Origin: Melampsora larici-populina 98AG31
Taxonomy: Eukaryota > Basidiomycota > Pucciniomycetes > Pucciniales > Melampsoraceae
Assembly (NCBI RefSeq): GCF_000204055.1
Contig: NW_006768794.1
Coordinates: forward strand, 495,752 to 559,751
DNA: 64,000 nucleotides
Direction: 5' to 3'
In this document: positions 39,673-64,000 of the stretch, in pieces
Layout: each line of letters opens with the position of its first letter
Position numbering within the stretch: position 1 is the first letter of the stretch
Position numbers and translations under genes: made by a program
Notes under the pieces: generated by a model
Seen by the model: only the letters and a program-made list of their open reading frames with translations
Database searches by the model: none
Told to the model about the DNA's origin: nothing

Positions 39673-39803
39673 TAATATAAGCATTTTAACTCTTGACATT
39701 GAGTTATGAGGTGTAAATGGTGTTTTATTACATACTACATGCTGTTTTAAGTGTACATGTATATGTAATAAGTGTTTTGGTACATTGTATGACATGTTAC
39801 ATA

Positions 39804-40187
39804 TGTTAAGGTCAGGCCTGACTGGTCACTAGAGATGGCAAGGCGCTCAGACCAAACTCGCCTATCTTTGGTTTAGGCTAAGATGGAATAATTAGGAAGT
39901 TCTAGGAAGAACTGGTTTCATTAGTTATCCTGTTACGTCATATGTGTAATGCCTTGTGAAACTTGTTTTGTATAAGGTGTGTGTGCTCTCATAGAACTGT
40001 TAGACTTTTCTCTCGTCACAAGTTGTTCTTGTTTTGGTAGAATCGTACTAACGCTAGTCTTCTCGGTTAGAGCTTATTTCTCTTTTCGTCATCTTATGCA
40101 AAGTCACAAATTGTTCTTGTTTTGGTAGAATCGTACTAACGCTAGTCTTCTAGCTTCTTCCGTGTTTCATCATATTTTGTCCCAATA
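39804..40187 (+). repeat. 5' LTR of the copia element
   Basis: It runs from TGTTAAGGTCAGG to TTTTGTCCCAATA. It contains an internal direct duplication of a TTGTTCTTGTTTTGGTAGAA-led block about 80 bp apart. GGTTATGAGC immediately after the LTR sits where the primer-binding site belongs and overlaps the gag start codon. Confidence 0.9.
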
Positions 40188-40837
40188 GGTTATGAGCTTT
40201 AGCCTCCCAGACAATATTGATTTATCTTTTGAAACCACGGATTCTTCTATGCCAAACAATACTATACAAGAACTTTCAAACTCTGCTCCGAATTCAACTA
40301 CCATGGCTGATGAATCTACGCCAATGGAAGGCCAACAAATTGTTGGCTCTGAAGGAGCGCCTAATGTTGGAAATCCCCAACATGTGACCAATCATTTGCA
40401 AACCAATCAGGCAAATGTTCAAGACCAGCATAATCTTAGTCAAACTCAACAGACTTTGAATCAAACTCAACACACAATCCATCAAACGATTCAAAATATT
40501 TTCCAATCCACCAGTGACAACGTGGATTCTTGGACGACTCTTACTAAGGGCGCGTTCACTTAACCGACATTGACTCAATTAGCGTCGGATGGATCTAATT
40601 TTGATGTTTGGGATGGTGACATCCAGGAATATCTCGACATGATGCCTGGTTGTGCGGCTTATCTTCACCCGGAGGCTGTACCTACCATTCCCGGATGGTG
40701 TGACGATCTTGCTAGAGGAGTTAACGGGGTGTTTCACTGGACCGTGGACCGCCATATCAGTTTACGATTGAAAGAACACTCCCCAATCCCGTCTGCTAGA
40801 TACGCCTATCTCAAGGCTCGTTTTTCTGGTCAAACGT

Positions 40838-44725: not shown

Positions 44726-46160
44726 GGACCTCCCGCATGACTCCAGGGCTTCTCATAGTCCGTCTTCCGGGTCTCATCGTTTGGTCATGACTCACTGCTT
44801 CCTTCTTTGACGACTTCCACTTTTAGTCATCCATTACCTTTCTTTTCACCTCTTCTCCATTCTCTTTTGCGATTACAATCCCAACTTTTTAAATTCTTTT
44901 CTGTTTGAATTTTTTTTTGATTCTTTTCCGTTTGCTAATTGTTGGTCCCTCTTGATTTCCTTAAAACTTATAACCTCGTCGTGCTGTTGTCCATGATTCA
45001 TGTAGCCATTGATCCAAAAGCCATTCGGCCGGTTATTGCTTTTCAATTTTCCAATTGTTGGTTTGTCTGCAACTATGTGAAATAAATAATCCCTTTGTGC
45101 TTTTGGCTATCTTGTATGGAGCTATTTCTTCCTTTTACTTGGCAAATTTTTTGTCTTTTTGTCCCCTTGTGGCATTGTCTCAATCTCTTGACGTTACAAT
45201 TGCTCTTTTATGCTGTTGCCCTTTTTATCCGAGCCACTATTGTCATAAGACGTACTAACATTATTGCTTTTGCTTTTCACTTTTTGTTTTCTTGGACTTT
45301 CAATTCCCGCTCCAGTCGTTCTGATCTTCGGTATTGTTAACACAAACAGATTATGACTCTTGCCCTGCCTCTCAACTGGCGTTAAAGTTTTACTATTTGA
45401 TGGTCACCTCTTCAATGCACATCGTACCTTTATCCAATCATCTCCCTTTCATTCATAACACTTATCTACCACTCGAAACTTTGATTATTTTCAACACTTG
45501 CCCTTCGCTCATCAATCTCTTGGCACCGCACTTTGTCTTCAGCAATTGTGATTTTCATTCCTATTCTTCTCTCCCATATTTGAACCAACTTGAAGATTAC
45601 TCGCCTTTTTATAACATCAAGCATGTCAAGCACTAATTTGTCTTTGTGCTCGACATGCTCAATGTTATAAAAAGGCAAGAAGGACAAGACTATTATTGAT
45701 TAAATGTAAGCTGAGTTATTATTGAACAAGTGGCGTACAACACCTGACAAAAATGTTATCCTATTATGGAATGATCAGGGATACATTTGTAGATTTCATT
45801 CGAGCTCGAGTCGTTTAATCATGTAGCAGTCATTTGATTCAAAAAGAAGTTTAGAGGATGCTTGTGACATAAATTTAAAGCTTGAAGTGGGGGACGTCTA
45901 CGTCATTGATTACATTCAGCATTGTGAGCGCAACAACGTGGTTTATTGGCGACAAAGGCATGACTGATACCTTTGTGGAGTGGTTTATTTGTAATTCATG
46001 ACCGGTTTAGCTTTTGTTAGTGGATTGTGTGCTACCACTACGGAACATTGATTATTCCTGGGATATTTCTCAACTGGTAAATTAGAAAATGCATGATATT
46101 AAACATGATTCACCTGTTGCGCGCATGCGCGCATAGTCTCTAGTATCTCAAAACGAAAAG
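44726..46160. mobile_element. Unidentified insertion of about 1.4 kb in the copia RT domain
   Basis: The RT frame breaks after NLNTKK near 44725 and resumes at KARYVVWGFTQREGIDF near 46157. AAAAG occurs at both junctions and may be the target duplication. The interior is pyrimidine-rich on the plus strand, has no TG..CA ends, no long inverted ends and no known coding sequence. A 14-bp palindrome GCGCGCATGCGCGC lies near 46120. Class unknown. Confidence 0.55.
45603..45676. repeat. Strong hairpin, 31-bp arms
   Basis: Arms 45603-45633 and 45646-45676 pair with three mismatches around a 12-bp loop. It sits inside the unidentified insertion. The transcript could fold like a small-RNA precursor, or it may be structural. 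Confidence 0.65.
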
Positions 46161-47203
46161 CAAGATATGTTGTTTGGGGTTTTACTCAGCGGGAAGGAAT
46201 TGATTTCTCTGATACTTTTGCTCCCACTGCTAAATTTACTTCATTAATGATTATTTTTACGATCAAGGTAAACAAAGGCTGGCACATACGTGGATTCAAT
46301 ATTGTCGCTGCATACCCACACAGTCCTATTGACGAGAAGATTTATGTCAGGCCGGCAGAAGGTTATATTATTGCTGCCTCTCCGAATCTCGTGTTGTTAC
46401 TCAAAAAGGCTCTTTATGGCACCAAGCAGGCTGCCAGATGCTGGTGGAAGCACTTCTCATCAGTGCTCGCGGGTATGGGTTGTAGGTATTGTAAAAACGA
46501 TCAGAGTTTATACGTTTTACACTATAAGGAACATATTGCAATTCTCTGGATCCACGTGATGATGGAGTTATCTGTGGATCTTCTCTTGAAATCATCTCTT
46601 ACATCCACGAATCTCTTCTTAAAACTTTCCAAATCACTTGGAATGACAATGTTGAACAAATTGTTGGAATTAAAATCACTTACAACCCGGACGGTATTTT
46701 TCTCTCACAACCCACCCTTACGCAATCTCTTTTGGAATCAACTGGTTTTTTGACATTGAAGACTTCGACACCTATGATTGCCAACTTACATCTCGACTCA
46801 TCCAATAAGGATGCTGTAGGTATAAACGCCTCATCTTTCTTATCAATTTTAGGTTCTCTTTCCTACCTAGCAATTGGTACTCGACCGGATATATCCTATA
46901 CGGTCAATTATCTCGCAAGATTTTCTTCCAAACCAAACGACGATCATTGGCTTGTTTTAAAACACTTGTTACGTTATGTTAGTGGTACGAAAAATGATGG
47001 AATCTATTTTAGGAAGGCAATTGTTGGGGAGGATTTAGTTATGTATTGTGATGCAAACTGGGGGGGGGAATTCTCGCGTTCTACGCATGGTTTTGTAGTT
47101 TTTCTTTTTGGTAATGTGATCTCTTGGGCCTCGAGGAGGCAAAGTTGCGTTGCGACTTCAACGTGTCATGCTGAATACATGGCTTTAGGTGTTTCAGCTA
47201 GGG

Positions 47204-47395
47204 TGTTAAGGCTAGGAATCGGGGTCTCACGACGGGGGTTGAGTGTCTTATCAATGAGTCTATTACGAGATTGTCGGATGAGAGAAGAAAGAGAAAGGCT
47301 GTACAAAGTGACGTGTACAAATAGCTAGTCTCTACTCATGTGACATCTCTCTCAATCCTTTCACACGTCTCTACATGTAATATGAGATCATAACA
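47204..47395 (+). mobile_element. Solo LTR, 192 bp, nested in copia RNase H
   Basis: TG..CA ends (TGTTAAGGCTAGG .. ATCATAACA) with a perfect 5-bp duplication TAGGG (47199-47203 and 47396-47400). Removing it joins HAEYMALGVSAR to ESIWIQNLLED in frame. It is not a copy of the host element's own LTR beyond the first eight bases. Confidence 0.85.
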
Positions 47396-47719
47396 TAGGG
47401 AATCTATTTGGATTCAGAATTTATTGGAAGACATTTTTAAATCAACTTTTATTACGACTTTAAAATGCGACAACACTGTGGCAATTAAAGTGGCTCAAGA
47501 TCTACATCTTACAAAACGATCACATCACGTCGCGCGCGAATTCCACTATGTCAATAAGCAAATATTTGATGGAAACTTGAAAATCGAATGGATTGACGGG
47601 CCAAATCAAAAGGCCGATATACTTACAAAATCTTTAGGAAATGTAATTTTTCAAATTCACAAGAAAAACATATGTATGGTATAGAAACACGTATAAACCT
47701 CTAAAAGGTTGAGGGGGGG

Positions 47720-48103
47720 TGTTAAGGTCAGGCCTGACTGGTCACTAGAGACGGCAAGGCGCTCAGACCAAACTCACCTATTTTTGGTTTAGGCTAAGAT
47801 GAAATAATTAGGAAGTTCGAGGAAGAAATGGTTTCATTAGTTATCCTGTTACGTCATATGTGTAATGCCTTGTGAAACTTGTTTTGTATAAGATGTGTGT
47901 GCTCTCATAGAACTGTTAGACCTTTCTCTTGTCACAAAATGTTCTTGTTTTGGTAGAATCGTACTAACGCTAGTCTTCTAGGTTAGAGCTTATTTCTCTT
48001 TTCGTCATCTTATGCAAAGTCACAAATTGTTCTTGTTTTGGTAGAATCGTACTAACACTAGTCTTCTAGCTTCTTCCGTGTTTCATCATATTTTGTCCCA
48101 ATA
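47720..48103 (+). repeat. 3' LTR of the copia element
   Basis: Same length as the 5' LTR and the same internal duplication; about 13 differences by eye. Followed by the ACATA target copy. Confidence 0.9.
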
Positions 48104-48520
48104 ACATACAGTCTAAGCATAGTATGTAGCATGTAATTAGTTTTATACATGATGTTTTTAATGTTACAAGTTAGTTGTGGTTACATGTATATGTACTCAG
48201 GGATGACACACCCAAAAACAAAGAATGAAAATAAAAATCCACCATATTTGGAATTGATCACATTTTTTAGTCTACACTTTCAACTTCTCAAATCATACTC
48301 ACCCATTATTCAAGCTTTTTGACAGAGCAGCACATCCACTTTGTCTTCAAGCTTTACAAAGAATGTCTGAAATCACTCAAATGGATCTGGTATTGTTAGG
48401 CCGTGAACAACATAAGCTACTGTACTTCTGATGCAAGGAAGCCAAAGATACTCTTCAAAGCTATGCTAATCAACAGGGTTACTTTTTGAACTGTCTGTGC
48501 TCAAAGAAAAGCAAAACTGG

Positions 48521-48930
48521 TGTAGTATTTAAAGCTAAACAATAGCTTTACAACACCTAAGAGGGATAATCTACTAATGTATGAATAGTAGAAGTGGCCT
48601 AAAGGCTGCCTTCTTCAAACAAATCAGCAAAAGGGCACTTGCTGACCACTTTGTGATAACAGAGAAATAGATAAAGACACCAAAGAAAGAACTCAATACT
48701 ATTATGAGTATTATTCCCAGTTTTCAAAACGCAAAAGTTCCCAAATATATCACTTACTAGCAATACTGTTGTAAGTATTATTCCCAAAGAAGACTTATAG
48801 TCTTTATCACACATAAATGAATTTCTCCTTAATTGAAGGGTGTGAATTAAGTGACCTTAGTACAAATATATTAATTTAATGATGATTGAAAACCCTATAA
48901 CAAAGGTATAAAATGAGAAAAAAGGGGAAC
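48521..48930 (-). repeat. Truncated copy of the 1.6-kb TG..CA repeat
   Basis: It begins TGTAGTATTTAAAGCT exactly like copy A and follows it for about 400 bp (for example GACCACTTTGTGATAACAG). It then breaks off before the minisatellite. No ACGT lies at its left edge. 48104-48520 shows no gene. Confidence 0.75.
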
Positions 48931-48989
48931 AAAGGCCGTGAAACAACCATCCATAGTAAAAAAGGATGTATTTTGAGTGACAACTATGT

Positions 48990-49740
48990 TTGTCAAGTTA
49001 TGAAAGACATATTTAGACACAACCAAGTTTTTTCAGTTAGTTACAAAAAACATATCTTGAGTTATGAGTATGTTTTTTGAGTGACAAGTATGTTTTTTTA
49101 TTTGCAACAAACATCTTGTGAGTTACAACCATGTTAGTTGAGTTACAAAAAACATCAATATATATCCAACACCATCCCATACAAAAAAATTAAACCAAAT
49201 TCAAAGCACTCCAACAGTGTAACATCACAACCAACACACTTGTAATCCAAAATACGGTTTTTGTAACTCAAAAAACATAGTTGGGACTCAAATATGTTTT
49301 TTGAGTTACAAAAAACATACTTGTTGCTCAAAATGTGTTTTTCTTTGTAACTTGCAAAACATATTTGTCACTCAAAGTATGTCTTTTGTAACTTGAAAGA
49401 CATACTTGTCACTCAGAATATTTTTTTGTAGCTCAAAAAACACAGTTCTCACTCAAAATATGTTTTTCATAACTCAAGAAACATAGTTGTAACTCAAAAT
49501 ATGTTTTTCATAACTCAGAAAACATAGCCATTGCTCAAAATGTGTTTTTTGCAACTTGAAAAACATAGGTGTAACTTCAAGGATGTTTTTTGTAACTCAA
49601 AACACATGGGTGTAACTCCCAAGATGTTTTTTGTAACTCAAAAAACATGGTCTTAGCTCCTAAGATGCTTCTTTTAACTCAAAAAACATGGTTGTAACCC
49701 AAAAGATGGTTTTTGGCACTCAAAAAACATCAGAACTGGA
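48990..49740. repeat. Minisatellite with palindromic core, about 41-bp period
   Basis: Diverged tandem units each centre on ATGTTTTTTGTAACTC followed by AAAAAACAT, so every unit can fold on itself. Copies are cleanest at 49560-49735 and decay to the left. No coding potential. Confidence 0.75.
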
Positions 49741-50870
49741 AGTAGGAACTGATTTAGGCACCATGACAGTCATATTAGAATTTAGACGCCATAATCATAG
49801 CGCCTCCATCAATACCTGACGCGCAGCGCAGTTTACCGCAATAAAAGTGCGCTGCAATGTGCACCATCACACCGGGAATGGATGGAAATAGCACTGCGCC
49901 CTGTAGCACCGCCGGGGCCTGGGCGTTTTGCAAACACTGCGCAGATTCACAGTGCAGCTAAGCACAGTGTGCGCAAACTGTGCGGCCCTGCGCTTCCCTG
50001 AGATGATACCCTACCTCCACTTTGACCAAAGCAAGGGTGGCCTTCCCCTTGCATCCAATCCTAACCAATATGACACCACCACCACCACAATTGGCTGCCA
50101 TCAATCTGGCTCTTTGACTCGATTCGTCTTTGATCAACCACATGGACATCAAATTAGTAATGTATTACTATCATCATTATCGGGAGATCCCATCCTTCCT
50201 GTCATTGTCAAACACCTGCGCCATAGTAGTTCAAGTTTGAAATCATTCAGATTACTTATTTCTCAGTCTCCAATGGTACCTATCTGGATCGTCTAACTAT
50301 CTTCAACTTTTTTACATCTTATTTGACCTGTTTGGTTCACAATATTACAAGAATTTATTTCATCAATACAATTAATACATTTACTTATTAATCAAAGCAT
50401 CTAAATCTCAATCTAATCAATTGTTGGTTTTTTATTTGTGCAAAATGACCAGAAAAACAGCCAAGTCTAGCTCTTCTAAGTCCAAGTCTAAAGCTTTGAA
50501 ACCTTCTCAATCCACATCATGATCCATTGAACAAGCTGTTGGGATCTGCCAATGGCTCAAGCAGAGGTTTTTGCCAAGTGGAGAGATAGGACAGGCGGTC
50601 GCAGCTGTAGAACGGCTTGTGGTGGGTTTAGCCAAGAAGAAAAAAAGTTGCCAAGGTTTAAGCTTCAGTGAAGGTTGTATCTTTTTTAAACATGTGTTTT
50701 GCTCAATTCTTTTCTCTGAAACGTCCACCTCCCTGTTTTTCCTGTCCTCTCTCTCACTTATGTATCTATGATACTCTCACTTGCTTATCTGTGATACTTG
50801 TTTGAGAGTATGCTTTGTCTCATTGTTGTGTAAAGTAATGGTCATTTTGTTATGGCCTGCTTCAGGGGGC
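49741..50870. other. Mixed repeat region without a clear gene
   Basis: 49790-50000 is GC-rich with imperfectly inverted GCGCAG..CAGTTT blocks at its ends, a possible small element. A plus-strand frame at about 50020-50296 (KGGLPLASNPNQYDTTTTT, then VFDQPHGHQISNV) looks coding but is unrecognised and truncated. The rest shows nothing. Confidence 0.35.
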
Positions 50871-51132: not shown

Positions 51133-52470
51133 TCACATACGCCTTGACCTTCTATGTTCTTCTGCTGCCTTCGGGTATTTTGAATTAAACTCGTCGATCA
51201 TCAATTTAGAGTTTGATACATTCCCCTCTGGCTCCCATGAGTCATCCGATCTTCCATATCCCTTCCAGCTAATCAGGTATTCAGTCTTCTTATTCCTAAT
51301 ACGTTTATCCAGGACGGCTTCGACTTCATATTCTTCTTCGCCGTCAATTTCTACGGGATACGGCGGTGCCTGTTGTCTCTCCTCAATCATATCTGGTGAA
51401 TGCTTTTTTAAGACTGATACGTGAAACACGGGATGAACTTTACTCATACTTGTTGGCAATCTTAACTTATAGGCCGATGTCGATATCTTCTTCTCAATAC
51501 TGAACGGGCCCAACCATCCATGGTCTAACTTTGCTGACGGTCTTGTTGTCGATATGTGGCGACTGCTGAGCCACACCTCGTCTCCAATGTTCCAATCTGG
51601 TGTAGGTCGAACTTTCTCATCATAATTCCGTTTCATACTATCCTGTGCTCGTAATAAGTTCTCTTTCAGCTCATTTTGAATCTCTTCGATGTTTCTTAGC
51701 CTTTCTTCCACTTCTGGTATACATCTTTCTCTCGATGGGATCCTGCCAAACAATAGGTCGTACCCCACATTCGCTTTGAACGGCGAGAATCCTGTGGACG
51801 TATGTGTGCTATTGTTGTACGCGAACTCGGCAAGCGGTAAGTGGTTAGTCCAGTCATCTTGCCTGTAACTCACAAAGTGACGCAGATAATGTTCTACGGC
51901 TTTATTAACGATCTCTGTCTGGCCGTCTGACTGTGGGTGGTATGCCGTCGAGGGATGTATGGCGATTCCTAGCTGTTGGTTCAAAGATTCAGTTAGTTTG
52001 GATACGAATACACTCCCTCTGTCCGATACGATTGACTTCGGTGCTCCGTGGAGCTTCCATACATTGGCCATCATCAAGTCAGCTAGTTCACTTGAGGACA
52101 TCTCGGTAGTGCAAGCAATAAAGTGGCTCATCTTCGTTAATCTATCGACTACGGTGAGGATACAGTTCTTTCCCTTTGAGAGCGGTAAGTCAGTTATCAA
52201 ATCATAACTAATATCCGTCCAAGGGCCTGCTGGCACAGGGAGCGGCTCGAGGGATCCGAAAGGCGATAAGCTTGAGGGTTTGACTCTTGTACACGAATCG
52301 CAGCCATCCACAAAGTCATTCACGTAAGTCTTCATCAGTTTCCACTTATACTGCCTTTGGACCAAGCTTAACGTCTTTGCCCTGCCTGGATGTCCCGCTA
52401 GGACGCTATCATGCCTACTCCGTAAGATCTCAAACTTCAAATAAAACAACTTTTTTTGCATCATAAACAT
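51133..52470 (-). CDS. Ty3/gypsy chromovirus integrase with chromodomain, 5'-truncated pol
   Basis: The frame is open for 445 codons. It contains the HHCC zinc site (H..GHPG..C-D-S-C at about residues 20-60), then the catalytic core with D-x-x-T-D (WTDISYDLITDLP), VSDRGSVF and GQTEIVN, so D, D and E are all present. A GPF/Y-like region (LDHGWLGPFSIEKKI) and HPVFHVSVLKKH follow. The end is a chromodomain (YEVEAVLDKRI..YLISWKGYGRSDDSWEPE) with its aromatic and WKG..WEP signature, which would target integration to methylated-histone chromatin. Protease, RT and RNase H are missing: homology stops near 52440-52470 and unrelated sequence begins. So it is a clean but incomplete fragment, not an autonomous element. 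Confidence 0.9.
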   Translation of the reverse strand: MFMMQKKLFYLKFEILRSRHDSVLAGHPGRAKTLSLVQRQYKWKLMKTYVNDFVDGCDSCTRVKPSSLSPFGSLEPLPVPAGPWTDISYDLITDLPLSKGKNCILTVVDRLTKMSHFIACTTEMSSSELADLMMANVWKLHGAPKSIVSDRGSVFVSKLTESLNQQLGIAIHPSTAYHPQSDGQTEIVNKAVEHYLRHFVSYRQDDWTNHLPLAEFAYNNSTHTSTGFSPFKANVGYDLLFGRIPSRERCIPEVEERLRNIEEIQNELKENLLRAQDSMKRNYDEKVRPTPDWNIGDEVWLSSRHISTTRPSAKLDHGWLGPFSIEKKISTSAYKLRLPTSMSKVHPVFHVSVLKKHSPDMIEERQQAPPYPVEIDGEEEYEVEAVLDKRIRNKKTEYLISWKGYGRSDDSWEPEGNVSNSKLMIDEFNSKYPKAAEEHRRSRRM

Positions 52471-52479
52471 GCATTAGAA

Positions 52480-53177
52480 TGTCTCTAGAGCTGATGAACT
52501 CACCTCACATCCCTAAAGTGCCTCTGAAGGTGTTAGGCAGCCCAAAAATCGAAATTTGACTCATCTGGCCAAATCTGGCCAAGTCTCAGATTCATCTGTA
52601 TGAATCTGAACCTGACTATTGTAAAGTCTTAAGATTCATCTGGCTACACAACCATCACTAAAGCCGTAGCAGATTGATCTGGCTACTCATCAGGCAGATT
52701 CATCTGTACATCACATTCACCACACTACTCTGTACAGTACATACATTACAGCTTGACTCGTTGCTCAACCACTGTACACACTGATCTACATATGTAATGA
52801 ATATGGAATTTGATTGTTGTATCCAGGAAAAGATTTGGGGGTGATCTCATCTGGCCTCATCTGACCCTCATCAGCACAAAATTGACTTGCTACACATCCG
52901 CCATCTCATAATTCTCAAGGGGAATTCTCATCTGGGCTCATCTGCCATTCTCAATATAACATTCTCACGTGCCACCAGCACAGTGGATGTCTCACTTATG
53001 TCGTGAAAATATCACACTCCATGGACTTTCCTCATCGAAATAACATAGTATTTATTCCAGACATGAAAGTCCACACAAGATCTGAAGGAAAAGGATCTTT
53101 GGGTACCTTCATGTCGACTTCTGAAGCGAAGCGTGCAAGTTAATATTGGTTGTGCAAAAGTTACATTTTTGTGAACA
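52480..53177. other. Spacer with repeated ATTCATCTG/ATCTGGC motifs
   Basis: Words such as AGATTCATCTG, CATCTGGCC and GATTGATCTGGC recur at least eight times between 52550 and 52940. This may be the subterminal zone of the KDZ element or unrelated repeat. No coding potential. Confidence 0.45.
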
Positions 53178-53515
53178 TTTCACACAGCGTATAATCTTGT
53201 GAAAAATTCACAAAATGTATAATCTTGTGAGAAATTCACAAGATGTATCATCTTGTGAAAAGTTCACAAGTTGTAAATCTTGTGAAAAATTCACAAGATG
53301 TATACTCTTGTAAAAAATTCACAAGCTGTATAATCTTGTGAAAAGTTCACAAGTTGTAAATCTTGTGAAAAATTCACAAGATGTATACTCTTGCAAAAAA
53401 TTCACAAGATGTATAATCTTGTGGAAACATCACAAAATGTATAATCTTGTGAAGCATTATATCATCTTGTGGACAGTTCACAACATATATTATCTTGTGA
53501 ACATTTCTGATTGTG
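53178..53515. repeat. Tandem palindromic repeat, about 28-bp period, 12 units
   Basis: Units follow the pattern ATCTTGTGAAAAATTCACAA, then GATGTATA. Each has an inverted CTTGTGAA / TTCACAAG pair. It ends 47 bp from the KDZ stop codon. Confidence 0.85.
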
Positions 53516-53561
53516 TTATATCAATTGCATTAAATGTTCCATGGAAAGAAAGAGTAAAATA

Positions 53562-56500
53562 TCATAATTCGAGCTTGCTCTGTAGCATATCCCTCCACTG
53601 TTCCTCCAAAACATTATCTTCAGCAATCATTGCTTCTGAATATTGGCGAGTGTTGTGCAGAAGAGAAACTAGATGAGTGTCCCATGCAAAGATCACACGT
53701 GCATGATCTAGAAATAGTCCATGATATATGGACTCCACAGTTTTGGTGCACTCTTCCCAAGTTGTCTTTGTAACAATGTGAGAAGCATGACTGCCTGTCA
53801 CCAACTGTATGGGAAGCGTATTGGCGGTTGGATCCCATCCTAAAGAATATAACATATGGAATTGAGCCTGGCTGAAATGACAAAATACAATTATATGAAT
53901 CAGAAAGTGCTTACCTGACTGGCTAAGGCCTAGTACATTTATAATCTTGGCATCTGTTGCCAGAGACCACATGAACATCTGCCGTACCTCATCAGCAATC
54001 CGCCTGAATTCTTCTTCGCAGCGGCAATATAATAGATAAGCCTGGATACCCCTCTGTGTATCCTCATCCACAGCCCAATTCTCATTTGGATGTGTTAGGT
54101 GTCCAAAGTTCCAGAAGATGTCTTCCAGTGATAAAGATTTAACTTCCTCATGTGTATAGTTTGTTATTGGTGTCTCTTCCGGATAGGAAGTATTGTACTT
54201 TACAATGAGATCATGATAGGTCTTCCATTTCTTTTGGAAGACTGTCTGTTTAGTTCTCATTAAAACCTTCATCCGTTGCTGCATCGAGGTACCTACAATC
54301 ACAGGCGGGAACCAATGAATTTCAATTCACACCAGTTTCTCTACTCACAAACCTTTCACGCAAGTTTCTCTACTCACGAACCTGCCTCCCATTTTTTTCC
54401 TAATTCGACTATGCCAACCTTTGCCTCATAGAGGTTGTTCTTGGCCACTCTTATCTGCAACAACAGAAGACCTCTCTCATCTATTGTTGCAAAGAATAGT
54501 CAACTTGTGAAACAGTGAACTACATACAGCGATAATAGTACCACACCTTCGGCTTCTGGAATGTCTCTAAATTCGTTGCCTCCAAGATCTAATAGAATTC
54601 TTTCGATTTCTTCTTCTAGGAATTCAATATTTCCTGGTAAGCTTGCCAGTGTACGGGTTTCAGTGATGGTCCTGCGTCGACGGAGGCTGCGTAGACTGGC
54701 CTCTTTTGCTCTGAACATATTAATAACAACATATAAGCTACACAGAACAACAAGATGATAACAACGGTCGTACTTGGCCTCTCTCAGTTCCTCTTCATGT
54801 TCAATCAATTCCTCAAGTGTATCTTGCAGGTTTTTCATGTTTATATCCCCCATGACTTCTCCCTGAACTAGTTTTTGACGAGCCCATTGAGCTGCAAAAT
54901 ATTCGTGGTCATACCCGCGCTTGATTTCAAGCTCAACCAGTATCTGCCGTTTCTCCTCCCGCGTCTGTTGGGTTATTTCCAGCTTGTGACGGGACGAGGC
55001 AGCTGGGATCAACCAAAACAGTCTTTAGAACTCATTAGAATTTACACATGAAATCAAATATCTTCTCACCTGAATTTGTGCGTAAGATTTCATTCTCGTG
55101 GGAGGCTTTGAGATCCACTGCATCTAATCGATGCTGCTTTGTAGCATATCGATTAGCAGCAACTAATTTGCATAGCTTACACCAACATCTTTCACATCCC
55201 TCTCCGTCCGACAGGCCACATCCTTCATTCAGTCTTGGGTTGTAATCTAGCTGGCAGCTCCAGCTGTGTACATACGCGTGGAAAACACTTGTACCAAATT
55301 TCAACTGACCTCGACGTCTTTCTTCTGTGAACAGGTTATGCTACATCCAATGTTTGCAATGTAAAGTCAGTATCAAGCTCTTGAGATGACTTTGAATAGT
55401 AATGTAGATATTCAACTCTGACTAGACCCTTCTCGATGTTGCATCCAATGTCGTAGAGAAATAACACCTTTGAATCTGCTTCGTCCAACTGCTTGAGGAG
55501 CCAGTCAGTGAGAGAATGGGCAAAATATGATCTACACATACATACATAAAGACGTCAGTTGAATCAATATATGATTATGTATCAAGAAAGTCGTTTGGGA
55601 AGGTACTTTTCACCACTTTGGACTATATTCACAAAGGCCAATGCATGGTCATGTCGACAAACCATTGCCAGTAACCCTGTGTCGTCGCAGGCACGCCACG
55701 TGGCGGCACTCCGTGAATCATTGGCAGCAGTATGCATCTGCGTGCAAGGATCCTAAAGGAATGTCTTGGGTTTCATCAGTTTTACATATGAATATCAAGG
55801 TAATATACATAATTGCAACCTAGCTTACCGGGGTGTCATCCGCAGAGCTAGGATGTACATTTTCCCACTTATTGACCTGTGTTGGATGTAGAAAGAGAGT
55901 TGGATAACGAATCTCAATCTCTTTCACCTCAACACTGGCTGACATGTGTCGTCTTTGTTGAAAGTTACCATCAACACAGACTACATAGTCTGGTTCACCA
56001 TTTTTCTTAGCATAAATATTCTCGCCAAAACAGCGTGGGCAATTGGCCCCTAGCTTTTCCTTTGGCGAAAGTTCCATTGCACGGGTACCAAGATCTTCTT
56101 TCACTTGAATCAAGCGTCGGTACGCATCTACTGCACAAGAAAACTGTCTTCCCCACCTCTGCAGCTGGTGACATCAACACCGGTATTAGTTTTCAGAATC
56201 AAGATTTGAGCACCAAGAATCATAGCACTTACCTTTTTTGTGATATCCTCTACAAATCCTAGGGCCACTCGGTGAAAAAAATCAAGTGCTTGAGCAAATG
56301 GATGTGTTCGAATACAGCAAAACCTCCAGAGGGCATCGTGTAGCCGGAGAAGTCTTAATGAGAAAGCAATTTCCGGCAGGACTGGAGATCCGCCGATGTA
56401 GCCCATTTGGATCAGCCGGACTTGGTCTGATTGGCACGTGCAGAACTCGACCGCTTGTGTAGTGTGTGCTGTCATGAAGAACAAAGATAGCTTTAATTCT

Positions 56501-57120
56501 GGGGTCATATAAAGTGATTTGAATGAACGTCCCTCACTTAAAATATCTACCAATTCAAGGTGCCTGATTCGTCTCTTCGCCGCTGAGCATCGACATTGAG
56601 TTTTTGAATCAAAATTCCAAGTTTCACCTTGACTCCAATCAACTGTGAGTAGCTTGCATTGCATGAACACCTTGAACATTGGTTCGAGTATGTTCTCCCA
56701 TTGTTGTACCTCTCGGATTCGACGTCTTCGATTATAATCACCTGCCATTGGAGTGACCACACCGCCCGGATTTGAAGCAATTGACTGCTCAGAATCATCG
56801 GATTCTGTCCCTGAATCAGTATCGTCATAAGAAGGTGTGTTGGGCTGGTCGTAATCAATTCCAAAAAAACCTTCGTTCCCGTTGTTGTGCAAGCCTTCGT
56901 CCCCGTGTAGAACATGAGGATCCTCAGTTGCAGCCGTCGGTAGAGCAGGAACTGGCGGCTGGGTGAGTGCTTGAACAAGCAGGTCGCATTGTTTTACACA
57001 ATATTCTTCTTCAGCTTCTTCCCATTCTGACAACTCCTTTGCCGATTGACTTGATTCTTGCCGAGGTTTGGATAAACGATTTACTGGAAGCAAATGATTT
57101 CCTTTTCTTCCAGGAGCCAT
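53562..57120 (-). CDS. KDZ-family transposase, 10 exons, apparently intact
   Basis: Exons 57120-56233, 56158-55829, 55752-55607, 55531-55417, 55340-55070, 55002-54774, 54710-54547, 54480-54382, 54292-53915 and 53839-53562 join in phase to 965 residues with no lesion. The KDZ (Kyakuja-Dileera-Zisupton) core is clear: CPRC zinc pair at about residues 336-339, VVCVDGNFQQRR (D359), PC..HTAAND (409-418), WRACDDTGL (425-433), CRHDHALAFVNIVQSGEK (438-455), LYDIGCNIEKG (480-490), then HAYVHSWSCQLDYNPRLNEG..LSDGEGCER (514-544). Acidic, Ser-rich residues 80-140 and a charged coiled coil (about 585-690) flank the core. In fungi these transposases are known to travel with TET/JBP genes, and one lies 836 bp upstream on the same strand. 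The last intron (53914-53840) is a multiple of three, so a retained form is also readable. Confidence 0.92.
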
Positions 57121-57539
57121 TCTGATTGGTGTGCGAAGAAAAGAATCAAATGGGATAGGTTGTGTTTTCAGGTTCTGACTAGTAATGGCTAGATCAGATG
57201 ATGCGAGAAATAGCCAGTGGTCTATATCTTTGTGATTTTCAAATCAATCACTTTTATTTACCACTTTAGGAAAATTATCTCATACTATTTGCGTAGTCTG
57301 ATCAATTCATTTCTCCTGTCCCAATTAGTACTTGAATATTGAACCAATTCAACATGTGATAAATAGGGTTCAAAATGTTTGTCACCTCACTCACACGTTT
57401 GACATACATCTATCTTTCATTCCATCTATTCAATCTTTGAGTAGGTTTCAAACCTACTGTTCCAGATGCCAAGATGAATAAAAAGGTGTTTATGAACTTT
57501 CATGACTCAGATTAAAAACACTGTTATATCTGGAGGGTG

Positions 57540-57815
57540 ATGTGAATAACGCACTGGAGCATTGTGAATATTTCTCACTATTGTGATATCTTCACAATAA
57601 TGTGAAATCTTCACACTATTGTGTGAAGATTTCACAATGATGTAAAAAAGTAGCAAATCTGTGATCTTTTCACAATGATGGATGTAAAGATCTCACAACA
57701 TTGTGATCTTTTCACCATTGCACCTGGAGGTGCTAAGCTCAGGCTGGTGTGCGGAGTTCACAATGTTGTTTGTACATATGTAGAAAATTCACAAAGTTGT
57801 GAATTTTCTCACATG
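57540..57815. repeat. Palindromic TTGTGAA/TTCACAA cluster between the KDZ and TET/JBP genes
   Basis: Inverted motif pairs such as TGTGAAGATTTCACA, CTTCACAATAATGTGAA and AATTCACAAAGTTGTGAATT recur. They use the same heptamers as the array at 53178-53515 on the other side of the transposase. It lies upstream of the transposase start, so it could be transposase-binding or promoter sequence. Confidence 0.7.
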
Positions 57816-57955
57816 CTCTTCTCAAAAAAGATGAAATTTAAGCGGAACATACTTGGAATCTCAACATTGTGTTTGTCCAAATTCAGTAAATCAAAGATGA
57901 ATCAAGGGTCATACGATAATGTACTGGAGAAAAACCCAATTATAATAAGCAATAG

Positions 57956-59441
57956 TTACACTTTTCCCCCTTTGAAAAGGGTGTTAAGCTTTGCCTTCCT
58001 TTTCATTTCAGCCTTGACCTTGCGAGCTTCCTTTCTCATGCTCTCCCTTTCAACCATTATCGCCTCACTAGCAACAGCCTTGATTTCCTTGAATTCGGTC
58101 TCTTCCTCCAATGTTCTCACCCTGGACTTATGATATGCCTCCCATTCGGTTGGTTTCATCTTGTCACGTTCTTTTTCAACTATATTAATACGTTCAACCA
58201 ACGACTTTGAAATCTGACATGATGTGCCAAAACGTGTGATTGCACACTTCGTTGGACTGATCTCATGGCCATGTTCATCATAAGTGATGGACTCAGCTGT
58301 ATAATGTTCAACCTAAAAACAGTTGATCAGTAAGTTTGATGAGGATAAATGTTTATTTGATCCTCTTGCAGATCCTTACCTGAGTATCCCAAAGAGTCTC
58401 ATAGATGCCATCACAACGATCATGGTCGACAACAATATCAAAGTCACCTAAGATAAATGAGCTGCCACATATCAAACCTTTATTCTCAGAGCCTTCCAGC
58501 TGGTAGGGTTTTCCAGTCTCGCGGTCAATGAGGCAGTTAATGCCAAATGCATAACGAGTATGGTCGTTGTCGGTGTGTGGTTCATTATAGAACCCATCAC
58601 AAGATACTACCATGTTTGATGCAAACACCTTGCCGTTTGGAGTATGTTGCCATTCTTCATTGTCAAATCCAGGAGCATTAGTTGCTAGCCCCACTTGTAA
58701 ATTCGTCTGGAAAATGGTGAATGATAAAGATCCAAAACGCTCGGCAAGAAAGTCGCGAAACCAATGGAATGTAGCCATTCGGATTTCATCGGCCAAGATA
58801 CGATCTAAATAGCGACAAGTGAAGTCGCTCAAGTGATATGGGCCTTTTGGACAGGTGGGCAGTTAGCATTGTGAGCGCATCTTAGCGGATTGATGGCACT
58901 AACCAAGCGAGATACCTGGATCCGATCCCCCTCTCCAGCCGACAACCCCCATCCAACCCCAAAATTTCCCCTCCTCTTTAGGCTTTTGCACAGCCCCATT
59001 CGTCTCACATTTCCACCTCGCTCTTGCAACCTTGAAACTAATTGAGATAGAATGATCAAACTTGGATCGTATGAGAGGATCCATATCCTTGAATCTTGTG
59101 CACCGAACCACCATCAATAGCGAAAGATCCTCCGCGTTGATAACCGCCACCGTACCAAAATAGATCATGATGGGATCTTGATCGAATAAACAATAGTCGC
59201 TCTTCTTGCTCCATCGAAAAATAAAGACAGTATCTGGCGGCAGACCCAGCTCAACAGTTAGCCTTGCCTTTGTTTCGGCGCGTTTGGTGTGCTTGCGACG
59301 GTACACCCGCCCTAAGGTAAAGTAAGCGTTCCATCTCGCCGTATTACGCTTGATGGCCGAAGGTGACGTTTTTGACTTGTAGTTATCGTTAGTTGGGATT
59401 CCCGCCTTTTTCGCTCTTCTGTGACGTTTTTGGCGAGACAT
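57956..59441 (-). CDS. TET/JBP-family 2-oxoglutarate/Fe(II) dioxygenase, three exons
   Basis: Exons 59441-58916, 58843-58380 and 58312-57956 join in phase to 448 residues. Residues 1-60 are basic (MSRQKRHRRAKKAG). The oxygenase domain opens with GKFWGWMGVVGWRGGSDPG (about 158-176), as in fungal TET/JBP proteins. The iron triad is H265-x-D267 (NEPHTDND) and probably H333 (VEHYTAES); R357 (TRFGTSCQI) should bind 2-oxoglutarate. FGINCLIDRETGKPY and SSFILGDFDIVVDH supply the strand between. The C-terminus (about 370-448) is a charged coiled coil ending in a Lys-rich tail. Family members oxidise 5-methylcytosine (TET) or thymine (JBP) in DNA in the nucleus. All key residues are present, so activity is plausible. 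The distal histidine sits at an exon junction and is the residue I am least sure of. Base specificity cannot be read from sequence. Confidence 0.88.
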
Positions 59442-61503
59442 GTTGATCGCAGATAACTATTGTTGTAAGGCAATGGATTGTAGTAAGCATTATGAACAAA
59501 TACGATTGAAATCAAACATAAAATGATTTGAAAGATGCATACATCTCTTTTATATGTCCTGTGCCCGATATATTAATCAAAGGAGGGGTAGAAGACCAAC
59601 CAATCGTTTTATTTGTTAGATAAGACAAAACTAAGTTGAAAAGAGAAGTTGAAGGAGGTTTGTATAATAAAATGTGAAAAAAGGGTCGATTGAAGTTGAT
59701 GGTAATGTTTAATGTTTATGTTGATTGATTTTAGAATCAGTTGTTGTTGAAGGGTGCTAGAATGATGGACTTGTGATCCTCCTAAGTGTTATGAATGATA
59801 TGATAATCTTTGGAGAAAGTAATCTTAAGATCAATCTGAAAAAGAGGAAATAAAAAATAATTGATTGTTTAAATGTTGTTCTACGTGAATCGACCAGACT
59901 TCGATTCACGATCGAGTAAGTTGTTGTCCTAAACTAGAACATAAACAAAACAAATACAAAAAGTGATCAGTATGAATCAAGCAAGAGGACCATCAAATGA
60001 AGGACTTACTGATGAACGCCACGTCAGGGAAATGGGTGTCCAATTGAGTTTCCAAGTAAAGACGTCCAGTTGTCCTCAAAAGGTAAGTTAGCGAGTCGGA
60101 TGACTGGGAGGTTCGTAGCGGGAGGCCTACAACACTCCAGTCAAACAACCACGACTGAACTTATAAGCTGCTGATTGATGATGTCCGAGGTGTGTTGATA
60201 GGAGGTGTCGAAAGGTGGTTGCTTGAATCTGACGATGTCCGATGTCAAGCAACGTGTGGTTTGGCGATCCAGCAGTTGAAATCAGCTGGATCGGTTTTGG
60301 CCCTGTTTGGCCCCGCTTTAGCAACAGCATGTACTGGTACTATACGTACCGGTACACGCTGTAGTGGACTAGGTCTAAGGTGGTGACAATTGGTAGTCAC
60401 GGACCTCGCTTTTAAGCCCAGGAAAACCTAACCTGGATAAGTACATACATTATGTACTTATCTGAGGGATGGGATACCCATATCCCATGATGTGGTCAAG
60501 ACGTGCTACAGGCTGAACATTGGCATCTTGTGAGGTACAAAAGTGCTATTTGTCATCCTCATTGATAACAAATAGCAGCTCATTAACATGAGCACTTGGT
60601 GATTTGGTGGGTGGTGAAAAAGAGCAGTTGCGTGAAGTGCAAGGACTTGTGTAGTGATGACTGGTTGTAATTGAAATTATTGTGATTTTGTGATTTTGTG
60701 ATTTTGTGAGATTGTGAGTTTGTGAGATTGTGAGATTGTGAGATTGCATTCTGGCAAGTCATTCACGTTATTTGACAATATGGCTTATCCACACCATTGA
60801 GATTGTGGAACCTCAAGCAACCTTCATTGAAAACAAGTGATTAATCATGTTTCCTGTCTACATCAAAAGGAAAAGTAAAACAAAGGCAGTTATGAAGAAT
60901 GTTATGAAGAATCATACCTTAACCAAAGGACTGCAGATTGGTGCCACAACTCTACCGGGACTGGTTGCAAGAACTTTGATATTTTATCAAAGTAATCAGT
61001 GGTCAGACACTGGTCAAATTACACACATATAAGGTGTTGCAGCATTGTATTCTCCCCACAGTGACAGGATATCCATGCATAGGATCCTTGTCACCGTGTT
61101 AAGTATCCTTTTCCACTAATATGTTGATCATTCATGATTAGGTCCACTTTAACATATGACAAGGAGGCATGGTGCTTCATTGTAAATAGCTAATTGAAAG
61201 TTATACCACAAGTAATACTTCAATGTAAGTTAGGTGACCACTCTGCATGAAGGTACTGGTATGACATATTGGTGACAAAATTGGGTATCCTGACCCCCAA
61301 AAAAAAAAAAAAAAAAAGTTGACCCAATGATTTCTAAATGCAATACAATCATGTGACAAGTTTGATTTTTGCATTTGAACCAAAACTGCAAAAGTTTTAT
61401 TTGGACATTTGACCGTTGTAAATAGGGTCAAATATCAGAAAATGAGCCACATTTGAAGGAAAAAAATACTCAGGTATTGCAAGTACATGAGTGTGTCATG
61501 CTG
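59442..61503. other. Long spacer upstream of the TET/JBP gene
   Basis: Contains a 17-bp inverted pair at 60324-60340 / 60346-60362 (ACAGCATGTACTGGTAC and its near inverse), a perfect palindrome at 60436-60462, a run of GATTTTGTGA / GAGATTGTGA direct repeats at 60678-60746, and a poly-A run near 61300. No supported gene. Confidence 0.5.
60436..60462. repeat. Perfect 12-bp-arm palindrome
   Basis: GATAAGTACATA is followed after three bases by its exact inverse TATGTACTTATC. It could be a binding site or cruciform; no context for a terminator role. Confidence 0.6.
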
Positions 61504-62215
61504 TTATGCAGTGCCTTTTGAAAACATGTTACACTTTACATTTTGAACCAAAACTGCAAAAGTTTTGTAAGGTCCATGTGTTCTCAAAAATGCTTGTCAC
61601 AGCATTTCTGATACCCCTAAAGGGGTCATAAGCGCAAGTAGCTATGGCGTGAGAGTGTAATATGCATAAGTATATTATACTCCTATGCAGTGCCTTTTGA
61701 AAACATGTTATACTTTACATTTTGAACCAAAACTGCAAAAGTTTTGTAAGGTCCATGTGTTCTCAGAAATGCTTGTCACAGCATGTCTGATACCCCTAAA
61801 GGGGTCATAAGCGCAAGTAGCTATGGCGTGAGAGTGTAATATGCATAAGTATATTATACTCCTATGCAGTGCCTTTTGAAAACATGTTATACTTTACATT
61901 TTGAACCAAAACTGAAAAAGTTTTGTAAGGTCCATGTGTTCTCAGAAATGCTTGTCACAGCATTTCTGATACCCCTAAAGGGGCCATAAGCGCAAGTAGC
62001 TATGGCGTGAGAGTGTAATATGCATAAGTATATTATACTCCTATGCAGTGCCTTTTGAAAACATGTTATACTTTACATTTTGAACAAAAACTGCAAAAGT
62101 TTTGTAAGGTCCATGTGTTCTCAAAAATGCTTGTCACAGCATGTCTGATACACCTAAAGGGGCCATAAGCGCAAGTAGCTATGGCGTGAGAGTGTAATGT
62201 GCAAGAGTATAGTAT
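61504..62215. repeat. Satellite-like tandem array, four units of about 180 bp
   Basis: Units start near 61504, 61684, 61863 and 62042 with TATGCAGTGCCTTTTGAAAA. They share TTTGAACCAAAACTGCAAAA and a GATACCCCTAAAGGGG inverted block and differ at a few positions each. No coding potential. 62216-62814 shows nothing else. Confidence 0.9.
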
Positions 62216-62814
62216 ACTCTCCTACGTGTTCCACTTTTAATTGGGAAACAAAACTACATATTGCTTATTAGGACAATGTGTGAAAATCCTACTACGACAT
62301 ACACAAAATCCATGTGCTGAAGGGACCATCAGTGCATGCAGCCTTGCACTGAGGGGGTACCGCGTATGTTCCTAAAAGACTGACTGGTCCTGATCTGTTT
62401 GAGCTTGAAATCAAGCTGCAAAGTGTGGCCAAATATGAGAGTTGTAAACTCTGGAAGGGGTAATCAATTCAATAAGAACTGGCTTGAAGGTACCGTGTGC
62501 GTAAATTATACTCCCATCAATGAATTCAACATGTTTTTCTTTTGAGATTGAAACAATACTGCAAACACGTAATGGCATCATGTGATTCAGTTTCCTAACT
62601 GCTATGGCACTAGGAACTCGTGATGGAGCTATATATCTGGAGTCAAAATAAGATCAAATAATGAGATAACATAAACAACATAACATTTCACTTATAAAAC
62701 ATTTCCCACTCCTTTTGTCAATTCAAAAGGAGATAACATAAATAAGATAACACTTTGATTCAACAATAATAAGATAAAATTTTGATTCAACGATCAATTG
62801 TTCACAATTTCCAT

Positions 62815-64000
62815 TCATGACTCTTCATCACTGTCACTCTCTACCTCTTCAGTAGAGGTTTCACTACCTTCTTTGTTATCGCCTTCTTTTCTCTCTCCTT
62901 TTCGGGCTCCTTTTTGTGCAGTAGAATCAGAGATAGCCAGAACATTCTCTAAATTGCAAGGGGTAGTTCCCAAGGCTGCCTTAATCTCATCCGCGTCTAA
63001 AGCTACCGGCTCGCCTATGGTTTCCTCAGTACCAACCTTGAGCTTAATCAAGCAAAACAGTCCATCCTCAATATCATTGATCCACTCGAGCCTTATTGCC
63101 AATTTCATTTTCTTGAATCCAACAATGAGTTTTTCGTTGGTTATTCTGGAACCTTCAGACATCGTAACTGCCACGGGCAAGGACATTACTCTTAATTCTG
63201 CCACAGGATCAGCAGTCTGTGGGAAACCCTGTTTGGGTAAGTAACCCAGCGTTTTAACTGAAATTGGACATAATCAGAACATTGAGAGAGATGAAAATAA
63301 AATAACAAATGGTATTTGGAAAACCTTACGAGTGAGAGCTGCCAGAAGACGTCCTAAATCAACTTTGATCTTGTCACTAGGCTGTTGCTTATCGCTTCTT
63401 TGGCGTTTTTTGGTTTTGGAGTTGGGATTGTTGACAGCAGCAATGGCCTTTGCCATTGATTCGCCTTGAGAGTATGTAGCAAAGACCGCAGCAAGACTCA
63501 TAGTTTTGTTGGCCCAAGTTGCTACCGCTGGATGAGTTGTATACTCCTCGAGCCACCCCAGATCAGTGGAGTTATTTGGAGTGACAGTGCTTGTTGCAAC
63601 CAGGTAGTAGGCAAAGTCCAACCGATTGGCTTCACAAGCAAGCTACAAACATAACAAAACATGAGTGTGCGGGATATTTCACAAGGCTAGAATCCAGTTG
63701 GAGATTCAACCGACCTGATGAGCTATCTTTTCAATAACATTCTTAGACTTGCGTTGGAGTTGTGAAGTTGAAGACCCTGATGAAGGCTTTTGTAATTCTT
63801 TCTTGACCTTCTCCAAATCAACCAAACGTTCGTATAAAGGGCGATAAAGTTCGTCTTCTTCAATAGTGAGTTTGTGAACATTTGGAACGGGTACAAATGA
63901 GTCACCACGGTCGTCTTCTTTTTCTTCTTCATCATCATCGCTGTCCTTCTCATCCGGGTCTAAAGCAATTGGGTTTGGAACACCAGATAGAGCGAAGAAG
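62815..64000 (-). CDS. Acidic protein of unknown function, 5' end off the window
   Basis: Exons (transcribed right to left) 64000-63715 (open to the edge), 63642-63330 and 63257-62815 join in phase, giving the last 347 residues. The visible N-terminal part has a strongly acidic run (DEKDSDDDEEEKEDD) followed by a helical stretch (RPLYERLVDLEKVKKELQK). A basic patch (KTKKRQRSDKQQ) could be a nuclear localisation signal. The third exon reads as an ordered domain (KLIVGFKKMKLAIRLEWIND) and ends in an acidic tail (EEVESDSDEES). No family recognised. It has the same orientation as the TET/JBP and KDZ genes but a 3.4-kb repeat-filled gap separates them. Confidence 0.6.

What the first reader, a model, noticed from the sequence alone, without database searches (positions are those of the whole stretch)
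53562..59441. Intact KDZ transposase next to an intact TET/JBP dioxygenase
Both genes reconstruct without a single stop or frameshift over 10 and 3 exons, on the same strand 836 bp apart. The dioxygenase keeps HxD, a downstream His and the TRFGTS arginine; the transposase keeps every KDZ signature block. The association of KDZ transposons with TET/JBP genes in basidiomycetes is known from comparative genomics (work of Iyer, Aravind and co-workers), but the biology is barely explored. Inference: a mobile element carries an enzyme that oxidises modified bases, which could erase host methylation silencing or mark the element's own ends. The preserved frames imply recent activity or selection.
Basis: partly seen in the sequence, partly recalled or inferred. 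Interest (0 to 1): 0.9.

Follow-up and report, generated by a model that had tools for sequence, protein, structure and literature searches.

The report
Patchwork transposon pair, conserved hairpin leader
A fungal genome carries a jumping-gene enzyme next to a DNA-base-oxidising enzyme, a pairing already described in rust fungi; here the two genes appear to come from different element lineages, and the oxidising gene has a strikingly conserved hairpin-shaped stretch in front of it.

Summary
The minus strand carries a 10-exon KDZ transposase gene (57120-53562; Pfam KDZ 186 bits) and a 3-exon Tet-like dioxygenase gene (59441-57956; PF20515 114 bits), 835 bp apart, without internal stops. The pairing recurs in this genome, and TET-carrying KDZ elements are published for rust fungi (Kojima 2025). 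"Recent activity" is not supported: the nearest KDZ copy is 79% identical, and one end is missing at 52437, where a Gypsy fragment begins. The pair is a mosaic: the window KDZ belongs to a lineage with no TET upstream in the five relatives read; the window TET is sister to TETs that ride a distant KDZ lineage, four copies of which show co-mobilisation. New here: a 68-nt noncoding block at 60090-60157, 82-89% identical to four relatives although TET synonymous sites are saturated. Of 12 genomic copies found, 11 lie 31-648 nt upstream of a TET gene or remnant on the same strand. It folds into a hairpin on the TET-sense strand, but pair-preservation tests were not significant, so an RNA role is unproven. 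Best reading: a mobile TET cassette with a conserved leader, exchanged between KDZ lineages.

The parts
51133..52436 (-). Gypsy LTR retrotransposon fragment (integrase zinc-binding, integrase core, SH3, chromodomain) abutting the cut end of the KDZ element
   Evidence: Pfam hits on ORF 51133-52473; KDZ terminal homology stops at 52437
52437..53561 (-). 3' terminal region of the KDZ-A element, lacking its outermost 168 bp
   Evidence: 79.5% inverted match to 69302-69833 over 537 columns; the sharp terminus of that copy is at 70001, and its last 168 bp were not found in the window
53169..53505 (.). array of about ten 28-bp units built on TTGTGA...TCACAA palindromes
53562..57120 (-). KDZ transposase gene, 10 exons, 957 aa, CxC1 + KDZ domains
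57561..57820 (.). second array of imperfect TGTGA...TCACA palindromes between the genes; homology to the nearest KDZ relative (C235) ends at about 57459, just before it
57956..59441 (-). Tet-like 2OG-Fe(II) dioxygenase gene, 3 exons (59441-58916, 58843-58380, 58312-57956), 448 aa
59457..60009 (-). possible 5'UTR intron (GTAAGT...ATAG) or insertion that separates the leader block from the TET ATG
   Evidence: read from sequence, unverified; a DNA search with 59460-60080 found no other copy
60090..60157 (-). 68-nt conserved noncoding block, hairpin on the TET-sense strand
61505..62219 (.). four tandem copies (97%) of a 179-bp unit
62818..63990 (-). second gene (ORF2) of KDZ-A elements, in pieces of several frames, here oriented as if it belonged to a head-to-head neighbour element; no Pfam hit for the 152-aa piece tested
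   Evidence: homology to C235, C125, C18 upstream regions

Best explanation
The locus is a mosaic of KDZ-family DNA transposons. A KDZ-A transposase gene, from a lineage without TET upstream as far as I could read, has come to lie downstream of a TET cassette (a conserved 68-bp leader block plus a 3-exon Tet-like dioxygenase gene). Relatives of that cassette travel as a unit with a distant KDZ-B lineage. How it works, inferred: the cassette's enzyme oxidises modified bases on the element's DNA and so relieves methylation-based silencing (published proposal). The leader block, transcribed as a hairpin at the 5' side of the TET mRNA, tunes or localises production of the enzyme. Shown here: the gene models, family membership, co-mobilisation of TET with KDZ-B, discordant histories at this locus, the cut left end, and strong conservation of the block and its attachment to TET genes. 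Inferred: enzyme activity, silencing escape, transcription of the block, and any RNA function.
For: Pfam scores. Trees: the window KDZ groups with C235 inside KDZ-A, and the window TET joins the C95/C17/C53/C4 TETs (support 100), lying outside those four (83). Branch lengths read from the trees give window-C17 about 0.66 for TET but about 2.1 for KDZ, while C95-C53, both TET+KDZ-B units, gives 0.67 and 0.69. No TET in the 4.3-6.1 kb fetched upstream of KDZ-A copies at C10, C125, C18, C11 and C235. Four TET+KDZ-B units with the TET start 3.8-4.5 kb from the KDZ match; KDZ parts of C53, C15 and C1 94, 94 and 88% identical to C4. Left end cut; terminus CACAGGTG at 70001 shared by C235, C10, C125, C18 and C11. 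Leader block: 12 genomic matches and 0 for the backward control; 11 of 12 upstream of TET on the same strand; window block 82-89% identical to four relatives while TET synonymous sites in the same comparisons are saturated, pS 0.77-0.83; sense-strand folding z mean -2.4 against -0.15 antisense over 12 copies.
Against: 64001-68890 is withheld (N), so the right-hand element cannot be read through. Only five KDZ-A relatives were read upstream, and only part of the way; the others were judged by absence from truncated hit lists. One of the five, C10, has a TET about 9 kb upstream on the other strand, outside the stretch read. The KDZ-B copy at C14:829730 is a fragment with no TET listed near it. 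Tree rows are fragments aligned to the window protein (coverage 0.44-0.99 for KDZ). Pair-keeping substitutions in the hairpin are not beyond chance (54 of 500 shuffles reach the observed covariation score; 9 of 14 single-step changes kept against 50% expected, P=0.22), so DNA-level conservation (a promoter) is not excluded. The 12 copies are related, so their z-scores are not independent, and two of them also fold well on the antisense strand (z -1.98 and -2.53). No RNA or methylation data.
Confidence: 0.72

Rival explanations
1. Co-inherited TET+ element: the window pair is an old, intact TET+ KDZ element that passed both genes down together, and the other KDZ-A copies lost TET.
For: Same-strand TET-then-KDZ order is the commonest arrangement of near pairs, 17 of 32; both frames are intact.
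Against: Under co-inheritance the TET distance to KDZ-B partners should match the KDZ distance; it is about a third of it, while it matches between C95 and C53. Five of five inspected KDZ-A relatives lack TET in the upstream stretch read.
Confidence: 0.15
2. Chance neighbours: a TET cassette (or a fragment of a KDZ-B or other TET+ element) inserted beside or inside a KDZ-A element and there is no functional link between the two genes here.
For: The TET homology is an island (58077-60158) with KDZ-A material on both sides; KDZ homology stops at about 57460; no target-site duplication could be shown.
Against: The TET sits upstream in the same orientation, as in KDZ-B units, and both frames stay open although the lineages are old.
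Confidence: 0.4
3. The conserved 68-bp block is a DNA element, such as a core promoter or transcription-factor site of the TET gene, and the hairpin is incidental.
For: It lies 31-188 nt before the ATG (or remnant) in 10 of the 11 TET-linked copies (648 nt in the window); TATAAG ends 2 nt upstream of the block in the window; the pair-preservation tests are not significant.
Against: Several G.U pairs are invariant or nearly so, which would be mismatches in DNA; on average the sense strand folds far better than the antisense; the conserved stretch has nearly the same limits as the stem; 68 bp is long for a core promoter.
Confidence: 0.4
4. Recently active autonomous element.
For: Open frames in both genes; KDZ dN/dS 0.25 against the nearest copy.
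Against: Nearest KDZ copy 79% DNA, no near-identical copy found; outer 168 bp of one end missing; the two terminal regions differ by about 20%.
Confidence: 0.05

Closest known systems
TET+ Dileera (KDZ) transposons of rust fungi, e.g. Zisupton-1_PGr (Kojima 2025, PMC12730594; I read the start of the text up to the heading of section 2.2, section 3.1, section 3.4, the first part of the Discussion, the legends, and the passages returned by one term search)
   Same: KDZ transposase plus Tet-like dioxygenase gene in one element; several TET copies per genome; TET genes transferred between transposons.
   Different: In the parts I read, the paper describes transfers between superfamilies; here the transfer is between two distant KDZ lineages. 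A term search of the main text finds 'hairpin', 'UTR' and 'noncoding' 0 times.
KDZ-associated TET/JBP expansions in basidiomycetes (Iyer et al. 2014; recalled and as cited in Kojima 2025, not read)
   Different: No comparison with its data was possible.
CcTET / AG-type TET of Coprinopsis cinerea (as described in Kojima 2025)
   Same: Same broad TET/JBP family with HxD...H.
   Different: The window protein has no sequence match to a solved TET structure at E<=10 by phmmer; the single row returned was an unrelated protein at E 0.45. CcTET is grouped by Kojima with AG-type enzymes of Kyakuja/Zisupton in mushrooms.

Membership tests
KDZ transposon | KDZ transposase domain (PF18758) with associated CxC cysteine cluster | tested here: met
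   186.1 bits over 2-217/217 and CxC1 81.2 bits
KDZ transposon | terminal inverted repeats | tested here: met
   Met for the family: CACCTGTGGC...GCCACAGGTG at both ends of the C125 relative (39543 and 50416). Window: terminus at 70001 on the right, left terminus missing
KDZ transposon | 8-bp target-site duplication (reported for Zisupton/Dileera in Kojima 2025) | tested here: inconclusive
   Window: left end cut. C125: the 8 bp outside the two ends differ (tctgattg / tttattta)
KDZ transposon | Dileera subgroup | not tested
   No subgroup profile or reference sequences at hand
TET/JBP dioxygenase | Tet-like 2OG-Fe(II) oxygenase domain | tested here: met
   PF20515 113.7 bits, positions 21-210/211
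TET/JBP dioxygenase | HxD...H facial triad and downstream Arg | tested here: met
   PHTD, EHYT and ITRFG present in the window protein; HxD in 12 of 12 own-genome rows, Arg in 11 of 12; HxD and His invariant in 6 of 6 outside homologues, but the Arg position is R in only 2 of the 5 that reach it
TET/JBP dioxygenase | oxidation of 5-methylcytosine or another modified base | not testable with these tools
TET+ transposon (TET carried as cargo of one element) | TET and transposase duplicated together as one unit | tested here: met
   Met for the KDZ-B units at C4, C53, C15, C1; not shown for the window pair itself
TET+ transposon (TET carried as cargo of one element) | TET lies between the two intact ends of the same element at this locus | tested here: not met
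   Left end missing at 52437; readable material right of TET looks like an oppositely oriented KDZ-A element, with 64001-68890 withheld
Known structured RNA | match to an Rfam family | tested here: not met
   No match at gathering threshold in the window, four matches far below gathering scores around the block

The most novel reading that the evidence does not exclude
Transposon-borne TET genes of this fungus carry a conserved 68-nt RNA hairpin leader that is part of the mobile TET cassette, moves with it between KDZ lineages, and regulates or localises the enzyme in cis (for example by control of translation, or by holding the nascent transcript and enzyme at the element that made it).
Probability: 0.4. 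Interest if true: 0.72.

Novelty: new variant of a known kind. Interest (0 to 1): 0.52.

Why it matters
The association of TET with KDZ transposons is known, but what keeps each TET working for its own element is open. A noncoding leader that stays recognisable where the synonymous sites of its gene are saturated, attached to the window TET and its nine closest paralogues, and found beside two unrelated transposase lineages, gives a concrete handle. It suggests that the transferable unit is leader plus gene, and it makes cis-control of a transposon-encoded DNA-demethylation enzyme testable.

Tried and rejected
Recent-activity reading: rejected by copy identity and the missing end. Palindrome arrays (53169-53505, 57561-57820) as a shared family signature: rejected. 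The strict motif occurs 7 times in the window and 3 times in 298 kb of fetched loci, one of these being a window overlap and one the right-hand neighbour; a looser motif forms an array in one TET locus, L016. Hairpin as a general feature of all TETs: rejected. In the 30 best-scoring Tet-like loci (L009-L038, flanks of 1.5 kb) the model gives only matches of 18.4, 14.4 (both L036) and 11.3 bits (L022), against 87-97 for the five true copies; only 12 places genome-wide fit the pattern. TCG-hypermutation contrast between TET-linked and other elements: looked at CpG and TCG ratios, no clear contrast, sample too small, not used. Solved-structure match by sequence: none to a TET. Rfam: none. Flank-identity comparison around the block: the gap-tolerant scoring gives random 120-mers a median of 0.70, so flank values of 0.60-0.82 are mostly background; the block's 0.82-0.91 lies above the 95% level of random 68-mers (0.79) but not all above their maximum (0.87). 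Ends of the KDZ-B units: the aligned stretch still ran to the edge of the fetched DNA on the right and broke inside KDZ on the left, so their ends are unresolved. Not obtained: structure prediction.
Full report
Observation. The window lies at G000:C30:495752-559751 in a 98.3-Mb genome of 243 contigs. It looks fungal and rust-like from its TET/KDZ content (inference; no call names the organism). The minus strand encodes a KDZ transposase and a Tet-like dioxygenase as described. My models give 957 and 448 aa without internal stops. Pfam: KDZ 186.1 bits over 2-217 of 217 positions, CxC1 81.2 bits, PF20515 113.7 bits. The borders around KDZ exons 7 and 8 are ambiguous (33 stop-free variants). The TET exon borders coincide with the borders of matches to many paralogues.

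How common the pair is. KDZ gives 207 matches in this genome, of which 150 were listed. The Tet-like family gives 150, from the 150 candidates scored out of 263. With five further TETs and after merging, 32 of 155 TET genes have one of 146 KDZ genes within 10 kb; random placement on the same contigs gives a mean of 9.9 and a maximum of 20 in 1000 trials. The lists are truncated, contig lengths were approximated by the largest coordinate seen, and transposons cluster, so this shows association, not a rate. Of the 32, 17 have KDZ downstream of TET on the same strand, 9 are divergent, 4 convergent, and 2 have KDZ upstream on the same strand.

Co-mobilisation is real, but in another lineage. The TETs closest to the window's (59-65% aa over exon 1 or 2) are at C17, C10, C3, C95, C53, C1, C12, C4 and C15 (94 of 369 candidates scored). 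C4 and C53 are copies of one unit, TET then KDZ-B on the same strand, aligned at 90-93% over several kb. The same KDZ-B recurs at 94% (C15) and 88% (C1), again with the TET start 3.8-4.5 kb away, and more distant KDZ-B matches lie beside the TETs at C17, C95 and C12 (40 of 64 candidates scored). So 7 of the 9 closest TETs have a KDZ-B nearby. For the C10 and C3 TETs no KDZ-B was listed, and KDZ-B matches at C14:829730 and C11:726931 have no TET listed beside them.

The window pair is a mosaic. The nearest full or long matches of the window KDZ (C235 79% DNA, C10 72%, C125 70%, C18, C1, C11 and C6 69%, C66 67%) form the KDZ-A clade. In the 4.3-6.1 kb fetched upstream of five of them (C10, C125, C18, C11, C235) there is no TET. 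C10 has one about 9 kb upstream on the other strand. C235, C125 and C18 carry a divergent second gene (ORF2) there; no ORF2 match was found for C10, and C11 was not tested. In trees, the window KDZ sits in KDZ-A (split from the rest supported at 100), while the window TET joins the KDZ-B-linked TETs (100) and lies outside the four of them included (83). Distances read from these trees are about 2.1 (KDZ) and 0.66 (TET) between the window and C17, but 0.69 and 0.67 between C95 and C53. The simplest account is that the TET cassette was transferred between KDZ lineages, or landed next to a KDZ-A copy.

Ends and age. KDZ-A elements end in CACCTGTGGC...GCCACAGGTG. The C125 element runs from 39543 to 50416 (10.9 kb), with no matching 8-bp duplication outside its ends. 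The left terminal region of the window KDZ is 79.5% identical to the right-hand one (69302-69833). It stops at 52437, where a Gypsy integrase-chromodomain fragment starts, and the outer 168 bp were not found in the window. A terminus lies at 70001, outside the window. ORF2 in the opposite sense (62818-63990) and a KDZ C-terminal piece (68927-69109, plus strand) suggest a second KDZ-A element head-to-head with the first, but 64001-68890 is withheld. Codon comparisons give dS 0.53 and dN/dS 0.25 with C235, and dN/dS 0.10-0.21 with six other KDZ-A copies, whose dS of 1.3-2.8 makes the ratios rough; six of the seven copies have 1-5 stops in the aligned part and C125 none. The KDZ lineage was under purifying selection, but this is not a recent burst.

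A conserved leader. A 68-bp noncoding block (60090-60157) upstream of the TET is 82-89% identical between the window and four relatives, and up to 91% among relatives. In the window-relative comparisons TET synonymous sites are saturated (pS 0.77-0.83). A degenerate pattern with up to 3 mismatches allowed found 12 places genome-wide and none for the backward control; a DNA search gave the same 12. Eleven of the 12 lie upstream of a TET gene or remnant on the same strand. Gaps to the start: 648 (window), 40 (C4), 40 (C53), 40 (C15), 31 (C1), 56 (C17), 69 (C95), 188 (C10), 141 (C3), 55 (C12), 188 (C70, a TET remnant); computed. The C15 and C70 starts are positions aligned to a relative's start, not checked as ATG. 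One copy, C1:1700904, has no TET in the hit lists. The window TET and its nine closest paralogues (10 of 10) have the block. In the 30 best-scoring Tet-like loci the model finds only weak matches (18.4, 14.4 and 11.3 bits).

Is it an RNA? RNAalifold gives one 23-24-pair hairpin. In all 12 copies the TET-sense strand folds better than the mean of shuffles (z -1.28 to -3.73, mean -2.39); the antisense mean is -0.15, although two copies also fold well on that strand (window -1.98, L087 -2.53). Several U.G pairs are invariant or nearly so. The conserved stretch and the stem have nearly the same limits. Against this: the shuffle control reaches the observed covariation score in 54 of 500 trials, and 9 of 14 distinct single-step changes keep the pair where 50% is expected (P=0.22). 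Other 68-nt windows in this palindrome-rich region fold as strongly (the block ranks 18th of 2608 overlapping windows). I therefore rate the conservation and the link to TET as firm, and the RNA structure as about even to somewhat more likely than not.

Known or new. Kojima 2025 (PMC12730594; start of the text to the heading of section 2.2, section 3.1, section 3.4, Discussion part 1, legends and term passages seen) reports TET+ Dileera elements in P. graminis, P. triticina and Melampsora larici-populina, transfers of TET genes between transposon superfamilies, and the silencing-escape idea. I found no description of a conserved leader of TET genes, but only one library search and one term search inside Kojima 2025 asked for it; searches were for the KDZ/TET literature, and I saw listings only. 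Supplements were not available. Oxidised methylcytosines in DNA and RNA of two mushrooms are reported in PMC8889193 (passages of a term search seen, part of the abstract among them). Outside this genome, six protein clusters match the TET (P0001 at 83% over 79% of the query, the others 43-47%), none with a source's name.

Mechanism, with steps marked. Shown: genes, association, co-mobilisation of TET with KDZ-B, mosaic history, cut end, conserved leader. Published inference: TET oxidises 5mC and relieves silencing of the element. My inference: the leader is transcribed and acts in cis on TET expression or on where the enzyme works. The loop holds an invariant GGCC, which could pair with another copy; this is speculation.

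Noticed in passing
61505-62219 and loci L012, L018, L035, L060, L061, L063, L064, L066, L067, L071, L078: Tandem arrays with unit lengths of 176-181 bp recur in these KDZ/TET loci, beside arrays of other lengths of 100 bp or more in some loci. The window unit shows no DNA match to the KDZ-B or KDZ-A loci compared. The common length, close to a nucleosome repeat, is unexplained.
   Followed up: partly
53169-53505 and 57561-57820: Arrays of palindromes (TTGTGA...TCACAA) flank the KDZ gene on both sides in the window but were not seen in the KDZ-A relatives fetched.
   Followed up: yes
KDZ-A termini (e.g. L068 near 5961-6001, L070 from 944): Just inside the terminal CACCTGTGGC lies a small palindrome of the type TTCGGC...GCCGAA, present with variation in the ends compared.
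   Followed up: no
C1:1700868-1700945 (L087): The most diverged hairpin copy (60.8 bits) has no TET in the hit lists.
   Followed up: partly
42357-44810: Copia-type retrotransposon pieces (gag, zinc knuckle, Pol_BBD, SH3) in the first and third of three adjacent open frames.
   Followed up: no
31708-32367: Weak hAT-like RNase-H match (23 bits, below the Pfam cut-off).
   Followed up: no
26358-26533: 95-bp unit repeated 1.9 times with 100% identity.
   Followed up: no
49233-49730: Array of a 41/82-bp unit.
   Followed up: no
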